From a virus: 21,350 nt of DNA. The stretch covers positions 1 through 21,350 of IMG/VR virus record IMGVR_UViG_3300013131_000288, one strand, 5' to 3'. This document shows, piece by piece, positions 2,950-20,718 of the stretch (its first letter is position 1; every line of letters starts with the position of its first letter). The notes beneath the pieces were generated by a model that saw only the letters and a program-made list of their open reading frames with translations, had not been told where the DNA came from and did no database searches. The translations under genes and the position numbers were made by a program.

Positions 2950-3079
2950 GAAAATAATAGGTATAGATTTTTCTTTGAATTTAGGATATATAATATATGA
3001 AAAGGTATGTTACATATCTAACTGTTTATATTGGAGAGCTTTTACCCAAATACTATATTGGTTCAACTTCCGAGGATAA
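2927..3079 (+). pseudogene. Relic 5' end of the RuvC-like nuclease gene
   Basis: A 50-codon reading frame opens at ATG 2927, inside the end of the tail-tube-like gene. Residues 9-22 read KKIIGIDFSLNLGY, matching the first catalytic motif of the downstream RuvC-like protein, whose N-terminus reads TKYIGVDFSPNSPGF. After about codon 23 the frame loses resemblance, enters the endonuclease gene and stops at 3079. This is best explained as the original start of the RuvC-like gene, disconnected when the endonuclease gene at 2997 inserted with a substitute 5' end. The two copies differ at many synonymous positions, which argues against a recent tandem duplication. The similarity is short but includes the invariant Gly-x-Asp. 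Confidence 0.6.
2984..2993 (+). promoter_or_regulatory. Late-promoter-like element GGATATATAA
   Basis: The element ends 3 nt before the ATG at 2997. The 17-mer covering the element and start codon (2984-3000) recurs exactly at 16320-16336. It probably marks where the mobile endonuclease cassette begins, since the resemblance of the RuvC relic to its parent fades here. Confidence 0.5.
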
Positions 3080-3824
3080 AATAATTTCTGGTAATTATTT
3101 TGGAAGTGTAAAATCTAAAAAATGGAAATCCATATTTAGAAACGAATTAAAAAAAAATAAACATTTATTTTCTGTACAAATATTATCATATCATAATGAT
3201 AGAAAATCCGCATTAGAAGAGGAATTAAGATTACAAAAAGAAAAAGATGTTGTAAGATCAAAAGATTATATTAATGAATCATTAGCAACCCCAAATGGAT
3301 TCTTTGGAATGGATACTAAGGGAGAGAAATCTCCAACGTTTGGAAATAAAATGTCTGATGAATCTAAGAAAAAAATGTCATTAGCAAAAAAGGGGAAAAG
3401 TTATGAAGAAATATACGGAAAAGAAACTGCTAATAAATTAAAATTAAGAATGTCTGAAAGATTTTCTGGTGATAAAAATCCAATGTATGGAATATCAAGA
3501 ATCGGAACTGATGCACCTAACTATGGAAATAAAATGTCTGATGAATCTAGGAAAAAAATGTCGGATTCACAGAAAGGAAATAGAAATAGATTAGGAAAAG
3601 AATCTTCAGAAAAAACTAGAAATATATTATCAGAATTAAATAAAGGCGAAAAAAACCCAAGATATAAAGAAATTAATTTTTCATTAGTTATTGGATTTAT
3701 AAAAAAGGGAAAAACCAATAAAGAAATATGTGAATTATTTGGTATTTCTATATGTACTTTTAGAAATAGATTTAAAGAAGAAATGGGAATATCAATAAAA
3801 GAATATAGGAAAAAATATGAATAA
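2997..3824 (+). CDS. GIY-YIG homing endonuclease with NUMOD3-type repeats
   Basis: The N-terminus carries a GIY-YIG nuclease motif: TVYIG at residues 9-13 and YYIGST at 19-24, followed by basic residues and ALEEELRLQKE, whose Glu fits the metal-binding position. Residues about 108-215 hold repeated NUMOD3-like DNA-contact modules (GEKSPTFGNKMSDESKKKM, GDKNPMYG, YGNKMSDESRKKM, GEKNPRY). The last 45 residues read as a helix-turn-helix (NKEICELFGISICTFRNRF). This layout is that of free-standing phage homing endonucleases such as the T4 Seg proteins. The gene sits between the relic and the working copy of the RuvC-like gene and overlaps the latter by 8 nt. Lysine and AAA codons are more frequent than in its neighbours, consistent with a mobile origin. 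Confidence 0.9.
   Translation: MKRYVTYLTVYIGELLPKYYIGSTSEDKIISGNYFGSVKSKKWKSIFRNELKKNKHLFSVQILSYHNDRKSALEEELRLQKEKDVVRSKDYINESLATPNGFFGMDTKGEKSPTFGNKMSDESKKKMSLAKKGKSYEEIYGKETANKLKLRMSERFSGDKNPMYGISRIGTDAPNYGNKMSDESRKKMSDSQKGNRNRLGKESSEKTRNILSELNKGEKNPRYKEINFSLVIGFIKKGKTNKEICELFGISICTFRNRFKEEMGISIKEYRKKYE
3341..3378 (+). repeat. Intragenic direct repeat in the GIY-YIG gene, copy 1
   Basis: These 38 nt recur at 3524-3561 with one mismatch (AAG versus AGG). They encode the repeated G-N-K-M-S-D-E-S-[KR]-K-K-M module of the NUMOD3-like DNA-binding region. The copies are 183 nt (61 codons) apart, so the repeat keeps frame. Confidence 0.8.
3524..3561 (+). repeat. Intragenic direct repeat in the GIY-YIG gene, copy 2
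   Basis: This is the second copy of the 38-nt repeat at 3341-3378. Its segment 3537-3556 is also identical over 20 nt to 8600-8619 in the unrelated endonuclease inside the uvsW locus. Confidence 0.8.
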
Positions 3825-7233: not shown

Positions 7234-8247
7234 ATGTTAAAGTTTTCAGTGACAGATGATAATAATTGGTTGAGTTTATTTCACTATGATGAGGAGTTCG
7301 AGAGAAAACAAATGGAAATTTCTTTAACTAGAAAAATACACAATCACTTTTTCCACCCTTTGGTTAAGAAAAAACATTGGGATGGATCAATATGTTTTAT
7401 TGATAAAAAACCCACATTCTGGAGAATCCCTGTTGGACTATGGGGAGAAGTATATGAGATTTGTGAAAAATATAAAATACCTGTTGAGATCAATGGTCTC
7501 GAAAGGGTAATAGATAATAAATTAACTTTGGAAGATTTTACTGAATGGTGTAATGAATTTTTCAAAGATGGTATAGGAGGAGATCCTAATAAAAAACCTA
7601 GAGACTATCAAATAGAAGCAGCTTGGAGAATAGTTAAGTTTAAACTTTCAGTTTCTGAAATTGCTACTAGTTCGGGTAAAACTTTTATTGCTTTTATAGT
7701 TTTAGCCTATTTAAAAAGTGTGCATAAAGTACAAAAGTTTCTAATGGTTGTTCCTAACACAAATTTAGTGTTACAAGGATCGGAAGATTTTGAAGAATAT
7801 GGACTCGAGAATCTTGATAACTGTGAGCTTCAACAAATACACGGATCTAATAAAAAGAAAATATCAAGTGGCCTAATGATAGGAACCTATCAATCGCTTG
7901 TGAAATTAGGACCTGAGTTTTTTGATGGAGTTGAAGCTGTGTTTGTGGATGAGTGTTTACACCCAGATTCTTTAGTAACTATGGCTGATAATTCATTAAA
8001 AAGAATCTGTGATATTGTTGTAGGGGAGGAAGTATTAACTGTAAATGATAAATCAGGAAAGGTCGAATCTAAAATTGTAGATTTTGTTTATCATAATATG
8101 TCAAAAGGTAATCAGATGTATGAAATAGAAACTGATTGCGGTAAGATATTAAAAGTTACAGGTAATCATAAGTTAAGACTTTCTACTGGAGAATGGAAAA
8201 AGGTTGAAGATCTGACAGAGTCTGATGAGTTATGGGATTTATATTAA
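7234..8247 (+). CDS. uvsW: UvsW-like helicase, N-terminal half fused to intein N-half (IntN)
   Basis: Residues 1-240 are the N-terminal half of a UvsW-type superfamily 2 helicase. They comprise the small N-terminal domain (FERKQMEISLTRKIHNHFFHPLVKK, WDGSICFIDKKP), then RDYQIEAAW (Q-motif region), Walker A TSSGKT (G148-K149-T150), the VVPNTNLVLQ motif, GTYQSLVK, and the start of Walker B, VFVDE. UvsW unwinds branched DNA and R-loops. At C241 (base 7954) the protein turns into a 97-residue intein N-terminal splicing domain that stops at 8247. The remaining helicase motifs are encoded only at 9201-10025 in another frame. The product cannot be an active helicase alone. The last 23 nt overlap the endonuclease gene, suggesting coupled translation. 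Confidence 0.9.
   Translation: MLKFSVTDDNNWLSLFHYDEEFERKQMEISLTRKIHNHFFHPLVKKKHWDGSICFIDKKPTFWRIPVGLWGEVYEICEKYKIPVEINGLERVIDNKLTLEDFTEWCNEFFKDGIGGDPNKKPRDYQIEAAWRIVKFKLSVSEIATSSGKTFIAFIVLAYLKSVHKVQKFLMVVPNTNLVLQGSEDFEEYGLENLDNCELQQIHGSNKKKISSGLMIGTYQSLVKLGPEFFDGVEAVFVDECLHPDSLVTMADNSLKRICDIVVGEEVLTVNDKSGKVESKIVDFVYHNMSKGNQMYEIETDCGKILKVTGNHKLRLSTGEWKKVEDLTESDELWDLY
7954..8244 (+). other. Split intein N-terminal fragment (IntN)
   Basis: The 97-residue Hint N-domain starts with nucleophile Cys1 (CLHPDSLVTMADNSLKRI, block A), has the strand VGEEVLTV, and carries block B with the TxxH motif (V-T69-G-N-H72-KL), followed by STGEWKKVEDL. In inteins Cys1 performs the first N-to-S shift and the TxxH His activates it. 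Length and ending resemble known split-intein N-halves. It ends at a stop codon rather than running into the endonuclease. Confidence 0.9.
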
Positions 8248-9094
8248 TAAAAGACCCATGTGTAACAATCAAGATAAACAAAAAATTAAAGAATATATTA
8301 TTAAGAATAAAAAATTTATAACTCAGTACCGGATGAAAGAGATATTAGATAAGGAAAAAAGAGCATTATCTAATATTAGGCTTTTTTCTGGAATAAACAT
8401 TCCTGATGAAATAGATGATGTTAAATCATTATTGTGTTTAATTGATGTTAATAACGGAGTATGTGAGAGGGATGGTTGTATAAACGAAAAATCAAGGGAT
8501 CCAGGTAGATGGGAACTAAGAAAATTCTGTAGTAGATCGTGTGCAGATAAGGATTTTGGATCTAAGCAAATTGGATGTAAAAATTCTTTCCATAACATAT
8601 CTGATGAATCTAGGAAAAATATGGGATCTAAGATATCTAAAAAAATTAGAAAAAGGATACTAGATGGTGAATTTACTCCTAATATAACTAATTCTTGGTC
8701 AAATAGTAAGATCTCTGTTAATATTAATGGCGAATTAAAATTTGTAAGATCCTCCTGGGAAGCATATTTTTATATTTTAAATAAGGATCTTAGTTATGAA
8801 TTAATAAGAATTCCCTATTTAGACGAAAAGACAAACAAAGTTAGAAGTTATATAACTGACTTTTGTGATTTTAATAATAAGATAATATATGAAATAAAAC
8901 CAAAAACGAGAGTAAAAGATAATTTTTTAAAAATAAAAGAGGCTAAGAAGTGGTGCGAAATAAATTCTTATTCCTATGTAATAATAACACAGGAATGGAT
9001 AATAGAGAGATATGATCGAAAAAAATTAGTGGATCAACCTGAAGGAGAAAGAATAGCAAGACTTATTGAAAAAATGATAAAATATGAAAATTAG
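8225..9094 (+). CDS. PD-(D/E)XK-like homing endonuclease within the split-intein locus
   Basis: The ORF has 289 residues. C80, C85, C102 and C106 (CERDGC ... FCSRSC) look like a zinc finger. Residues 126-145 (SDESRKNMGSKISKKIRKRI) are NUMOD3-like. The C-terminal third has a nuclease core: VRSSWEAYF (E179), SYITDF (D212) and IIYEIKP (E223, K225), then a Lys-rich helix and SYVIIT, fitting the E...D...ExK order of PD-(D/E)XK or VSR-like homing nucleases. It would cut intein-free uvsW alleles to spread the element. The start is uncertain: ATG 8225 overlaps the IntN ORF, while ATG 8258 (residue 12) lies just after the upstream stop behind an AATAAAAG leader and may be the true start. The end overlaps the C-half gene by 11 nt. 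The exact nuclease subfamily is inference. Confidence 0.82.
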   Translation: MSYGIYINKRPMCNNQDKQKIKEYIIKNKKFITQYRMKEILDKEKRALSNIRLFSGINIPDEIDDVKSLLCLIDVNNGVCERDGCINEKSRDPGRWELRKFCSRSCADKDFGSKQIGCKNSFHNISDESRKNMGSKISKKIRKRILDGEFTPNITNSWSNSKISVNINGELKFVRSSWEAYFYILNKDLSYELIRIPYLDEKTNKVRSYITDFCDFNNKIIYEIKPKTRVKDNFLKIKEAKKWCEINSYSYVIITQEWIIERYDRKKLVDQPEGERIARLIEKMIKYEN

Positions 9095-9200
9095 ATCGAT
9101 AAAAAAAATTAATCATTGTGACGACGTTTATAATTTAAGAATAAAATCTGATGATGGAAATAATCATAATTATATTGCTGAAGGTATACTCGTAAGTAAT
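9084..9200 (+). other. Split intein C-terminal fragment (IntC)
   Basis: The 39 residues contain block F (DDVYNLRI ... NNHNYIAEGI) and block G ending LVSN before Cys+1. The terminal Asn39 would cyclise and the +1 Cys act as second nucleophile. The penultimate residue is Ser rather than the usual His, as in the fast DnaE split inteins (ending ASN before C). The length is typical of natural IntC pieces. Confidence 0.9.
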
Positions 9201-10025
9201 TGCCATCAAGCAAAATCTTCTTCGATCAAGCAGGTCGTTGCTTTGTGTAGAGACTCCAAATGGAGATTTGGTTTATCCGGTACTCTAACTAATAAGAAGA
9301 GTGCTGAGTATTTAACTATACAACAATTCCTTGGACCTTTAGTTATGGAGATATCACCTAAATTTCTTTTCGAGAATAAGTATGCTACTCCTGTGAATAT
9401 CAAGATCATTAAAATGAATTGGATGGATCCTGAGGTCAAGGCGAAGTTAGGTAATCTTAGAGAGAATAAGGTTGAGCTTGAAGGTAATGATCTTTTCAAT
9501 CTGGAGAGAAAACTTGTTGTTAATTCAGATGCTAGATTAAATTTCATTATCGAATTTATTTTAAAGACGTCTAAGAATTCATTAGTACTTTTTCAGTCTG
9601 TTGCAGAAGGTTATGGTAAAAAGATATATGATGGTATTAGAGGCAGAACATCAGACAAAGAGGTTTATTATATAGACGGAGATACTAGTCCAGATAAAAG
9701 AGATATATTTACCCAGAGAATGGAAGAAGGTACTAATAAAGTAATGGTAGCTTCTTTTGGTACTATGTCAACTGGGATTTCTGTAAAAAATATCCATAAT
9801 ATATTTCTAGTTGAATCTTATAAATCCGAGGTTCTTATTAAACAGAGTCTTGGTAGGGGGATGAGGTTATATGAAGGTAAAGAGAAAGTTAACATAATAG
9901 ACTTTGTGGATGATTTCTCTTATAATGGAAAAGATAACTACCTAATGAAACACTCCAAAGAAAGAATAGAGATTTATAAAAGAGAGCATTTCGAATATAA
10001 AGTATATAATGTAGATGTGAAGTAA
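9084..10025 (+). CDS. uvsW: Intein C-half (IntC) fused to UvsW-like helicase C-terminal half
   Basis: Residues 1-39 are an intein C-terminal domain. From C40 the protein is the second half of a UvsW-like helicase, beginning CHQAKSSSI, which completes the DECH motif. Then come motif III GLSGTL (63-68), the second RecA domain with LVLFQSVAEGYGKKIYD, a Y-Y-I-D-G-D strand, VASFGTMSTGISVKNIHN (motif V) and motif VI QSLGRGMRL (Q254, R258, R261), ending with IIDFVDDFSY. All match the order in T4 UvsW (QTIGRVLRK, VWDLIDDAG). The ATG at 9084 overlaps the endonuclease stop by 11 nt. Neither half contains a full set of ATPase motifs, so activity should depend on trans-splicing. Confidence 0.9.
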   Translation: MKIRSIKKINHCDDVYNLRIKSDDGNNHNYIAEGILVSNCHQAKSSSIKQVVALCRDSKWRFGLSGTLTNKKSAEYLTIQQFLGPLVMEISPKFLFENKYATPVNIKIIKMNWMDPEVKAKLGNLRENKVELEGNDLFNLERKLVVNSDARLNFIIEFILKTSKNSLVLFQSVAEGYGKKIYDGIRGRTSDKEVYYIDGDTSPDKRDIFTQRMEEGTNKVMVASFGTMSTGISVKNIHNIFLVESYKSEVLIKQSLGRGMRLYEGKEKVNIIDFVDDFSYNGKDNYLMKHSKERIEIYKREHFEYKVYNVDVK

Positions 10026-16914: not shown

Positions 16915-17298
16915 TTATTCTATTGTTTCGAAATAGAACTTTACCTCTATATCAGTTTCTTTGATTAGTCCGTATCTTTTTGCAAATTTGTATTGTGTAC
17001 TGTATTCATTTAGTGATTTAACAAATTGTTTTATATTGTTTCTAAACTGCTCAAGTGTATATGAATTCTTCTGTATGTTACAACTAGCACATGAAGGGTT
17101 ATAGTTTTCCAAGGTTTCTTTCTCCGGGTTTCTACAATTACCAGTTTTTACAAATCTTCCTTTTTTCCTATTCCATTTACTTTCCCTGATGATTGGTTCT
17201 ATGTGATCTGCGTGCCATCCTTTTACTAATTCACAACCACAGTATGAACATTTTCCGTCGTATTTATTAAATACAATCTCTCGTTCTTTTTTTGTCAT
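16915..17298 (-). CDS. HNH homing-type endonuclease
   Basis: This 127-residue protein has a complete HNH core: zinc-binding CSYC (C17, C20) and CASC (C70, C73), the catalytic block WHADHIEPI (H29, D31, H32) and NYNPSCASCNIQKNS supplying the later Asn residues. Free-standing HNH nucleases of this length are common mobile genes in T4-like phages; a role in packaging or host DNA breakdown is possible but less likely here. It begins 1 nt after the stop of the minus-strand gene upstream and ends flush against the plus-strand gene at 16914. Confidence 0.85.
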   Translation of the reverse strand: MTKKEREIVFNKYDGKCSYCGCELVKGWHADHIEPIIRESKWNRKKGRFVKTGNCRNPEKETLENYNPSCASCNIQKNSYTLEQFRNNIKQFVKSLNEYSTQYKFAKRYGLIKETDIEVKFYFETIE

Positions 17299-17660: not shown

Positions 17661-19079
17661 ATGATAATAGATATTGAAAACATAGGAGGAGGTACTTTAA
17701 AGGTATCTCATTACACTGAGGAGGGGGAAGTAAATCTTTTAAAGATAAACGTACCCAAGTCTCAGCATTTTGTTTGGAAAAGGACACATGATAGGGATAA
17801 GGAAAAAGACAATGAATGGACATCTTGGGATAAATCACCGATTAAGAAACATCCAACTACTAGATTTGATAAGTATAGAACAACAGAAATTCTAGAATGT
17901 ATAGATCCAAATATAACTAAGCCTCTTTGGGATTATCAAACGCCAAAAAAATACTTTGTCGATATAGAGGTAGAGATTACAGACAATAGAGCGGATTCAT
18001 TAGACACCTTGAATTCTCCGAATAAGGTTGTTTCTATCGGTATGGCATCAAGCCACGGTAAGGTTCTAGTTATGGGATTGGATGACATGCCACCAGAGAA
18101 AATATTAAGAATTAACAAAAGACTGGCAGAGTATTTCAAGGGAAGACCAGGGGAATGGAGTTTTAATTATAGAAAGTTTGAAAGTGAATTTGATATGCTC
18201 TACACATTCTTTTCTGCTCTACTTCCTAAAATGCCTCTAGTTACTGGATGGAACTGGTTTGGATATGACTGGCCTTATTTGTTAAATAGAGCGAGAAGAC
18301 TTGGAATAGATCCTAAGATTGGATCTCCTTCAGGAGTTCTTCTAGGTAACAATCAAATACCTATGCACGTACTAATGGTCGATTACCTAGAGATCTATAA
18401 AAAATGGGACAGGGTTATTAAAATACGTGAATCCAACTCTTTAGATTATGTTGCAGAGCAGGCACTCGGTATTAAGAAAGTTAAGTATGATGGAACATTA
18501 AGGGATTTATACGAATCAGATTTTGAGACTTTTATATTCTATAACGCAGTCGATTGTGTGCTACTTCATTATATAGACAAAAGACTTGATACACTTTCAA
18601 CATTCTTTAAAATTGCACAAGTAAGTAGGGTTGAAATAAACCGTGCGCTTTCACCGGTTTGGACAACAGAAGTACTGATGCTTAGAAAGTTCATGGAACG
18701 GAAACAAGTTATCCTTGATGAAAGGAAGGAGGTACCAGATGTTAAATTCGAAGGGGCATTCGTTAAGAAACCAAAACCTGGTATGTATTCTTGGATTGCT
18801 TGTTTTGACTTTGCTTCTCTTTATCCTAATACGATGATGCAATGGGGTATATCACCTGAAATATTTATTGGTAAGAATATAGAAGATCTCCCGGAGGGAG
18901 CTATAAAAACATCTTCAGGAGCTTGCTTCTATAGTCCTGAAGGAAGACCCCCAGTTTTAAGGGAGATACTAGAATGGCTTTATTCACAAAGAAAAGCAAC
19001 TAAGAAAAAGTACTTTGAGTGTGAGAAAGAAATAGAGAAAATAAAAAAAGCGATAAAAGAGAAACAAAAATCAATATAA
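17661..19079 (+). CDS. 43: Family B DNA polymerase, N-terminal half only (gp43A-like)
   Basis: The 472 residues cover the N-terminal and 3'-5' exonuclease domains and the start of the palm: Exo I VDIEVEI (D101, E103), Exo II GWNWFGYDWPYL (N198, D203), Exo III YNAVDCV (Y294, D298), and polymerase motif A CFDFASLYPN (D383, S386, Y388). The protein ends after WLYSQRKATKKKYFE and a Lys/Glu-rich helix, at the fingers, so motif B (KxxxNSxYG), motif C (DTD) and the thumb are missing. T4 gp43 has 898 residues. No continuation is present in any frame downstream to 21350. Some Aeromonas T4-like phages have gene 43 split into 43A and 43B, so a separate C-terminal gene outside the window is likely. The 3'-5' exonuclease residues are intact. 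Confidence 0.88.
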   Translation: MIIDIENIGGGTLKVSHYTEEGEVNLLKINVPKSQHFVWKRTHDRDKEKDNEWTSWDKSPIKKHPTTRFDKYRTTEILECIDPNITKPLWDYQTPKKYFVDIEVEITDNRADSLDTLNSPNKVVSIGMASSHGKVLVMGLDDMPPEKILRINKRLAEYFKGRPGEWSFNYRKFESEFDMLYTFFSALLPKMPLVTGWNWFGYDWPYLLNRARRLGIDPKIGSPSGVLLGNNQIPMHVLMVDYLEIYKKWDRVIKIRESNSLDYVAEQALGIKKVKYDGTLRDLYESDFETFIFYNAVDCVLLHYIDKRLDTLSTFFKIAQVSRVEINRALSPVWTTEVLMLRKFMERKQVILDERKEVPDVKFEGAFVKKPKPGMYSWIACFDFASLYPNTMMQWGISPEIFIGKNIEDLPEGAIKTSSGACFYSPEGRPPVLREILEWLYSQRKATKKKYFECEKEIEKIKKAIKEKQKSI

Positions 19080-19848: not shown

Positions 19849-20718
19849 ATGAAAGCTTTTGTATATCGTTGGACCAATCATAAGAATCTTATGCAATATA
19901 TTGGATCTCATATAGGGGATATTGATGATGGATATGTAGGATCCGGAAAATATTTTATTAATGCCTATAACAAAAATCCCGAATTTTTTTCACGTGAGAT
20001 ATTGGAATTTATAGAGGGAGATGACGTAAAGAGTATAATAAAGGAGAGAGAAGAGTATTACCTAAATATTTATGAAGTTTCAAAAAATCCTCTATATTAT
20101 AACATAACTGAAAGATATTTCGGTGGAGATGTTTATTCAGGATTAAACGAGGAGGATAAAAAGATTATGATGGATAAAACGGTAAAAAAAACTAAGGAGG
20201 ATAGGGCCAATAATCCAGAAAAATGGAGATTAATATATGATAAGATGTCTAAAACTAAGAGAGATAAATCTTCTTATATTAACCAATTTGATATTAATGG
20301 AATATTGATAAGTACTTATTCTTGTATAGAGGAAGCACACGAAATGACTGGAATATCTAAAGGAAATATACATTCGGTTCTAATAGGTAAAAGAAATAAT
20401 GCTGGTGGATTTAGGTGGTCCTATACAGATGTACCTAATCTGCTTATTAATAAAAAACGCGGAAGACCTAATGGGGTAAGGAACAAGAATAAAATGGAAA
20501 GATCACATACCAATGTAAGAAAACTGGAAGTGATTCAGTATGATCTAGAGGGGGATTTAATTAGAATTTGGGAATCTTCTTTAGAAGCATCTAGGGAGTT
20601 GGGATTAAGCTCAGGATCAATAAACCATTTTATTAACGGAAGAAAACCAAAGTCAGGAAACTACGGAGGATTTATATGGGAAAAAGGAAATAATATCACT
20701 TACACCATATACAAATAA
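19849..20718 (+). CDS. GIY-YIG homing endonuclease with two NUMOD1-type domains
   Basis: This 289-residue protein has a GIY-YIG-type N-terminus (AFVYRWTN at 3-10, QYIGSHIG at 16-23, then GYVGSGKYF and EREEYYLN with a candidate catalytic Glu). Two NUMOD1-like repeats follow: INQFDINGILISTYSCIEEA ... GGFRW (about 134-186) and VIQYDLEGDLIRIWESSLEA ... GGFIW (about 228-280), each a beta-hairpin plus helix-turn-helix used to bind DNA. An RGRPNG AT-hook-like stretch lies between them. The domain layout differs from the first GIY-YIG gene, so the two are separate arrivals. It lies between gene 56 and nrdB; nrdB is a known target region for such enzymes in T4-like phages. Confidence 0.88.
   Translation: MKAFVYRWTNHKNLMQYIGSHIGDIDDGYVGSGKYFINAYNKNPEFFSREILEFIEGDDVKSIIKEREEYYLNIYEVSKNPLYYNITERYFGGDVYSGLNEEDKKIMMDKTVKKTKEDRANNPEKWRLIYDKMSKTKRDKSSYINQFDINGILISTYSCIEEAHEMTGISKGNIHSVLIGKRNNAGGFRWSYTDVPNLLINKKRGRPNGVRNKNKMERSHTNVRKLEVIQYDLEGDLIRIWESSLEASRELGLSSGSINHFINGRKPKSGNYGGFIWEKGNNITYTIYK

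What the first reader, a model, noticed from the sequence alone, without database searches (positions are those of the whole stretch)
7234..10025. UvsW helicase encoded as a fractured gene requiring protein trans-splicing
Three overlapping ORFs in three frames encode N-extein+IntN (337 aa), a homing endonuclease (up to 289 aa) and IntC+C-extein (313 aa). Both intein halves have full block A/B (Cys1, TxxH) and block F/G (Asn before Cys+1) motifs. The summed exteins (514 aa) match T4 UvsW in length and motif order. I know fractured genes with split inteins and an intervening endonuclease from marine metagenome work on helicase, reductase and similar genes. I do not recall one in uvsW, so this may be a new split intein, but novelty is unverified.
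Basis: partly seen in the sequence, partly recalled or inferred. Interest (0 to 1): 0.93.

Follow-up and report, generated by a model that had tools for sequence, protein, structure and literature searches.

The report
Split-intein UvsW helicase with homing nuclease
In this phage the repair-helicase gene uvsW is broken in two by a selfish element, a split self-splicing protein segment with a DNA-cutting enzyme gene between its halves, so the helicase probably has to be joined from two separately made proteins; this is a known kind of arrangement that the papers I could search do not describe in this gene.

Summary
Three overlapping ORFs in three frames encode UvsW N-extein (240 aa) + IntN (97 aa), a 289-aa nuclease, and IntC (39 aa) + C-extein (274 aa). 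Precise removal gives a 514-aa protein whose closest solved relative is T4 UvsW. The break lies inside ATPase motif II, DE|CH; the Cys of DECH is the +1 nucleophile. It is not a sequencing error: the same layout at the same residue recurs in about 19 other IMG/VR contigs and in public phage genomes (Salmonella S16 group, Proteus PM2, Prevotella Lak-B), without intein annotation. Related loci show an empty site, a split form with a decayed nuclease, and two fused cis mini-inteins at the same residue. The element has moved laterally: window and L021 are interleaved with empty alleles in the UvsW tree, and element codons are less diverged than the host gene. The nuclease is TnsA-like PD-(D/E)xK, not the Vsr-like family I recall from the original fractured genes. 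Best reading: a functional fractured gene with split intein and homing nuclease, a known kind with a host gene apparently unreported in the searchable literature. Trans-splicing and homing are inferred, not shown.

The parts
7234..7953 (+). UvsW N-extein (240 aa): N-terminal domain, Walker A (TSSGKT), up to ...VFVDE of motif II
   Evidence: PF04851 ResIII 5.6e-14; PDB 1RIF/2OCA T4 UvsW 3e-14
7954..8247 (+). IntN (97 aa): Cys1, block B TGNH; stop codon at 8245-8247
   Evidence: TIGR01445 4.1e-9; conserved in 4-way and 38-row alignments
8225..9094 (+). TnsA-like PD-(D/E)xK putative homing endonuclease (289 aa; overlaps IntN end by 23 nt and IntC start by 11 nt); alternative ATG at 8258 gives 278 aa
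   Evidence: PF08722 4.1e-6; E179, D212, E223-x-K225 invariant in 18 sequences; Foldseek best hit TnsA
9084..9200 (+). IntC (39 aa): block F NHNY, block G ...LVSN, last residue Asn39
   Evidence: TIGR01443 3.3e-4; 38-row alignment
9201..10025 (+). UvsW C-extein (274 aa), begins at +1 Cys: CHQAKS..., helicase C-terminal domain
   Evidence: PF00271 4.5e-6; PDB 2OCA T4 UvsW 1.3e-26

Best explanation
A mobile element made of a naturally split intein with a nuclease gene between its halves sits in the phage uvsW gene, exactly inside the DE|CH Walker B (motif II) box. The two host-gene ORFs are translated separately. IntN and IntC associate, Cys1 and the +1 Cys (the Cys of DECH) carry out the thioester exchange, Asn39 cyclises, and an intact 514-aa UvsW results. 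The nuclease is proposed to cut the conserved empty DECH-coding site in co-infecting phages, so that the whole element is copied in (homing). Shown: anatomy, conservation, site, empty/split/decayed/fused alleles, lateral movement. Inferred: trans-splicing, site-specific cleavage, loss of helicase function without splicing.
For: Intein and UvsW domain matches on the correct halves. Exact empty alleles in relatives 71-81% identical over the spliced 509-513 aa. Same residue in about 19 other IMG/VR contigs and in S16, PM2 and Lak-B phages, with C1, a terminal Asn and +1 Cys kept. In S16 and PM2 the three-ORF overlap is kept with a different frame relation, which argues for separate starts rather than programmed frameshift or error. 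W versus L021: dN/dS 0.09-0.18 in N-extein, IntN, HEN and IntC. Extein tree needs at least 6 changes of state; window and L021 sit among empty alleles. Element synonymous codons less diverged than extein for W-L021 (excess 0.33 vs 0.10, P about 0.001) and S16-PM2 (aa 75% vs 62%, P about 0.004). Contiguous mini-inteins at the same residue in L029/L030 and L043.
Against: No biochemical evidence of splicing or cleavage. Penultimate residue of the intein is Ser, not His (tolerated in many inteins, from general knowledge). The AlphaFold model of the fused relative L029 is low-confidence over parts of the intein (pLDDT <50 at residues 231-280 and 338-370). No co-conversion tract is visible. The nuclease target was not determined. 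Most pairwise codon tests other than W-L021, S16-PM2 and W-L063 show no difference, because synonymous sites are near saturation.
Confidence: 0.86

Rival explanations
1. The split is old and the halves work as a two-subunit helicase without splicing, with intein remnants as a docking domain, as in genes-in-pieces ribonucleotide reductase.
For: A nuclease-split ribonucleotide reductase that keeps function is known (Friedrich 2007, cited in PMC3322345 and PMC10448857). Translation of both halves is expected anyway.
Against: Cys1, TGNH, a terminal Asn and +1 Cys are kept across all the distant relatives examined, although nothing but splicing needs them. The break is inside the DECH catalytic motif, which could hardly work unjoined.
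Confidence: 0.05
2. Sequencing or assembly errors broke one continuous intein ORF with an internal endonuclease.
For: Overlapping ORFs in shifted frames can look like indel errors.
Against: The same layout in independently sequenced isolates and metagenomes; frame shifts differ between lineages; HEN has its own start, and each frame is under purifying selection.
Confidence: 0.01
3. Programmed frameshifting produces one long precursor that splices in cis.
For: ORFs overlap by 23 and 11 nt.
Against: The needed shift differs between relatives (0, +1, +2), and in several loci (L025, L031, L042) the first HEN start lies after the N-ORF stop. Every complete split locus keeps an ATG at the IntC start.
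Confidence: 0.02
4. Splicing still occurs but the nuclease of this copy is inactive and the element is now inherited only vertically.
For: Some relatives have truncated or missing nucleases (L037/L038, L029, L043).
Against: The window's nuclease is full length with all catalytic residues, dN/dS 0.16-0.33, and patchy distribution with lateral transfer.
Confidence: 0.06

Closest known systems
Fractured genes with split inteins (Dassa et al. 2009, NAR 37:2560; text not held, known from memory and citations)
   Same: Host enzyme gene broken by split intein halves with a free-standing endonuclease gene in between; phage DNA-metabolism genes
   Different: Host gene is uvsW; nuclease is TnsA-like rather than Vsr-like. 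I recall eight enzyme types in that paper and could not check whether UvsW is among them.
Salmonella phage S16 gp114/gp114.1/gp115, Proteus phage PM2, Prevotella phage Lak-B2
   Same: Same gene, same DE|CH residue, same three-ORF layout, homologous intein and nuclease
   Different: IntN only 31-40% identical to the window's; annotated as helicase pieces (S16, PM2) or not annotated (Lak); Lak copy read with TAG=Q
Pseudomonas phage MIJ3 split PolB intein (PMC6892783)
   Same: Split intein with endonuclease ORF between halves of a replication gene
   Different: Host gene PolB, nuclease HNH
gp41-1 and NrdJ-1 split inteins (PDB 6QAZ, 8UBS)
   Same: Phage/metagenome split inteins; profile of this family matches both (5.8e-9, 2.5e-11)
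   Different: Different host genes and sequences; those were shown to splice
TnsA N-terminal nuclease (PF08722; PDB 1F1Z, 1T0F)
   Same: PD-(D/E)xK catalytic core, best Foldseek hit, E 1.5e-3, probability 1.00
   Different: TnsA is a transposase subunit; here linked to DNA-binding-like modules (NUMOD3 in 7 of 18 members)

Membership tests
Intein, split | Block A Cys1 and block B TxxH on the N half | tested here: met
   TIGR01445 4.1e-9; C1 and TGNH conserved
Intein, split | Block F/G with terminal Asn and Cys/Ser/Thr at +1 on the C half | tested here: met
   TIGR01443 above cut-off; N39 and C+1
Intein, split | Halves on separate ORFs | tested here: met
Intein, split | Trans-splicing activity | not testable with these tools
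   No experiment possible
Fractured gene (Dassa 2009 type) | Nuclease ORF between the intein halves | tested here: met
   IntN 93-100 aa, IntC 35-39 aa with nuclease ORF between them in all split relatives
Fractured gene (Dassa 2009 type) | Exteins join to a complete conserved enzyme; intein-free alleles exist | tested here: met
UvsW helicase | Sequence match to T4 UvsW over both halves with helicase motifs | tested here: met
   PDB 2OCA 1.3e-26 (C half), 1RIF 2.9e-14 (N half)
Vsr-like (EDxHD) homing endonuclease | Vsr profile or fold match | tested here: not met
   No Vsr hit in Pfam for the window protein or 17 relatives; fold search returns TnsA
TnsA-like PD-(D/E)xK nuclease | Profile match and catalytic E..D..ExK | tested here: met
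   13 of 18 members match PF08722; E179, D212, E223, K225 invariant
Homing endonuclease | Cleaves the intein-free allele | not testable with these tools
   Lateral movement supports it indirectly

The most novel reading that the evidence does not exclude
One intein family at one residue of one gene shows the whole homing cycle in split form: empty site, split element with nuclease, split element with decayed nuclease (L037/L038), and secondary fusion to a cis mini-intein that keeps the former IntC start Met (L029, L043). This would show that natural gene fracturing by inteins can be reversed.
Probability: 0.45. Interest if true: 0.65.

Novelty: new member of a known kind. Interest (0 to 1): 0.5.

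Why it matters
It adds the T4-type recombination helicase to the genes found fractured by split inteins and explains why several sequenced phages, including Salmonella phage S16, appear to have uvsW in pieces. It supplies about 20 diverse natural split inteins for protein-ligation work. It also gives a natural series (empty, split, nuclease-decayed, fused) in which the direction of intein splitting and fusion can be tested.

Tried and rejected
Group I/II intron reading: Rfam finds nothing in the window. Programmed frameshift: frame relation not conserved. Co-conversion tract: no gradient of identity around the site, relatives too diverged. Vsr-type nuclease: no match. AlphaFold of the natural cis relative L029: parts of the intein below pLDDT 50, not used. 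Near DNA matches in annotated phages: none. Literature: no held paper joins 'split intein' with UvsW; of the seven that hold both 'intein' and UvsW, the six I searched inside do not describe this, and PMC6690015 was not opened; Dassa 2009 is not held.

Full report
What is there. The window is a complete IMG/VR record of 21,350 nt, a fragment of a T4-type phage genome; there is no further sequence of this genome to search. ORFs 7234-8247, 8225-9094 and 9084-10025 are open in three different frames. The first encodes 240 aa of a UvsW-type helicase ending in VFVDE, then 97 aa that match the intein N-terminal splicing region (TIGR01445 4.1e-9; Pfam Hint 2.7e-10). The last begins with 39 aa matching the intein C-terminal splicing region (TIGR01443, above its cut-off) and continues with 274 aa of helicase. 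Each extein half finds T4 UvsW (2OCA, 1RIF) as its best solved relative. Joining the exteins gives 514 aa and restores the DECH motif II. The Cys of DECH is the +1 nucleophile.

It is real and recurrent. Intein-free uvsW alleles 71-81% identical over 509-513 residues align across the junction without a gap (L002-L012). The same break, at the same residue, with a nuclease ORF between the halves, occurs in about 19 other IMG/VR contigs and in public phage records: Salmonella phage S16 and its relatives, Proteus phage PM2 and Prevotella phages Lak-B2/B4/B7/B8. The Lak copy has intact ORFs only when TAG is read as Gln. In every split relative examined, IntN is about 93-100 aa and IntC 35-39 aa; Cys1, a terminal Asn and +1 Cys are present. 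The frame relation between the ORFs differs among lineages. dN/dS between window and L021 is 0.09-0.18 in N-extein, IntN, nuclease and IntC (extein synonymous sites are near saturation). Sequencing error and programmed frameshift are therefore rejected.

The nuclease. The 289-aa ORF matches PF08722 (TnsA-like N-terminal nuclease, 4.1e-6; 13 of 18 members of the family match). An AlphaFold model (mean pLDDT 87.8, pTM 0.56) finds TnsA as best solved structure (E 1.5e-3, probability 1.00). E179, D212, E223 and K225 are invariant, a PD-(D/E)xK signature. Homologous nucleases sit beside terminase large-subunit ORFs in Yersinia and E. coli phages and between the halves of a split clamp-loader gene (gp44 type) in LR756500 (L018), again at a DE|C ATPase motif.

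It moves. In the UvsW extein tree the window and L021, both fractured, are interleaved with empty alleles L002 and L003 on supported branches; the labels need at least 6 changes (empty alleles were found with the window's own extein, so they are sampled near it). The element is less diverged than its host gene in two pairs after correction for codon usage: window-L021 (excess synonymous identity 0.33 vs 0.10, bootstrap P about 0.001) and S16-PM2 (amino-acid identity 75% vs 62%, P about 0.004). About 25 pairs were compared; a third, window-L063, is weaker (P about 0.02), and most others are saturated. No co-conversion tract could be seen.

A series of states. At the same residue, L029/L030 and L043 carry contiguous mini-inteins (139 and 134 aa) in one open frame, lying within the split family in the intein tree. 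Both keep a Met where split relatives start IntC, which suggests, but does not prove, fusion of a formerly split form. L037/L038 keep the split but have only a 120-aa nuclease remnant. Together with empty alleles this looks like a homing cycle.

Mechanism. Most likely the halves are translated separately and trans-spliced to UvsW, and the nuclease spreads the element between co-infecting phages by cutting the conserved motif II coding sequence. Anatomy, conservation and mobility are shown; splicing and cleavage are inferred from the families. Starts in this phage show little Shine-Dalgarno signal, so separate initiation at 8225 and 9084 is not out of keeping with its other genes.

Novelty. No paper in the searchable library joins 'split intein' with UvsW, and six of the seven papers holding both 'intein' and UvsW, opened by text search, do not describe this; the seventh (PMC6690015) was not opened. 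The defining paper on fractured genes (Dassa 2009) is not held, so its host-gene list could not be checked. The sequences themselves are public, and PHROGs already has separate families for the N half with IntN and the C half with IntC (phrog_16259, phrog_9690). I file it as a new member of a known kind, with a nuclease type that differs from the Vsr-like one I recall for the original fractured genes.

Noticed in passing
L037 2126-4297, L034 1497-3485, L054 2066-4258: uvsW carries a second, contiguous intein (LAGLIDADG type in L037 and L034) in the Walker A region (GAGK|C...HN|T in L037), in addition to the split intein in Walker B: two inteins in the two ATPase motifs of one gene.
   Followed up: partly
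L046-L049, L051, L052, L056-L059, L036: Split genes of RNA-ligase type: RNA_lig_T4_1 match in L046 and L058, PHA02142 OB-fold match in L056; related split inteins, in L046, L058 and L036 just after a KxDG-like motif, separate nuclease ORFs, one with a weak Vsr match (L056).
   Followed up: partly
L018 1576-4321 (LR756500): Clamp-loader gene (gp44 type) fractured by a split intein at a DE|C ATPase motif with a nuclease of the same TnsA-like family.
   Followed up: partly
17661-19079: DNA polymerase B ORF stops at 472 aa after motif A; no C-terminal half follows in the window and no intein sequence was seen at its end, so the polymerase may be split too.
   Followed up: partly
2997-3824, 16915-17298 (-), 19849-20718: Three further putative homing endonucleases: two GIY-YIG-like (NUMOD3; NUMOD1) and one HNH, in 21 kb.
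   Followed up: no
1-21350: Gene starts mostly lack Shine-Dalgarno motifs and GC is 31%; with Lak (Prevotella) phages as relatives this hints at a Bacteroidota host.
   Followed up: no
L037 4291-4653: 120-aa remnant of the nuclease without the catalytic domain, between intact intein halves.
   Followed up: partly
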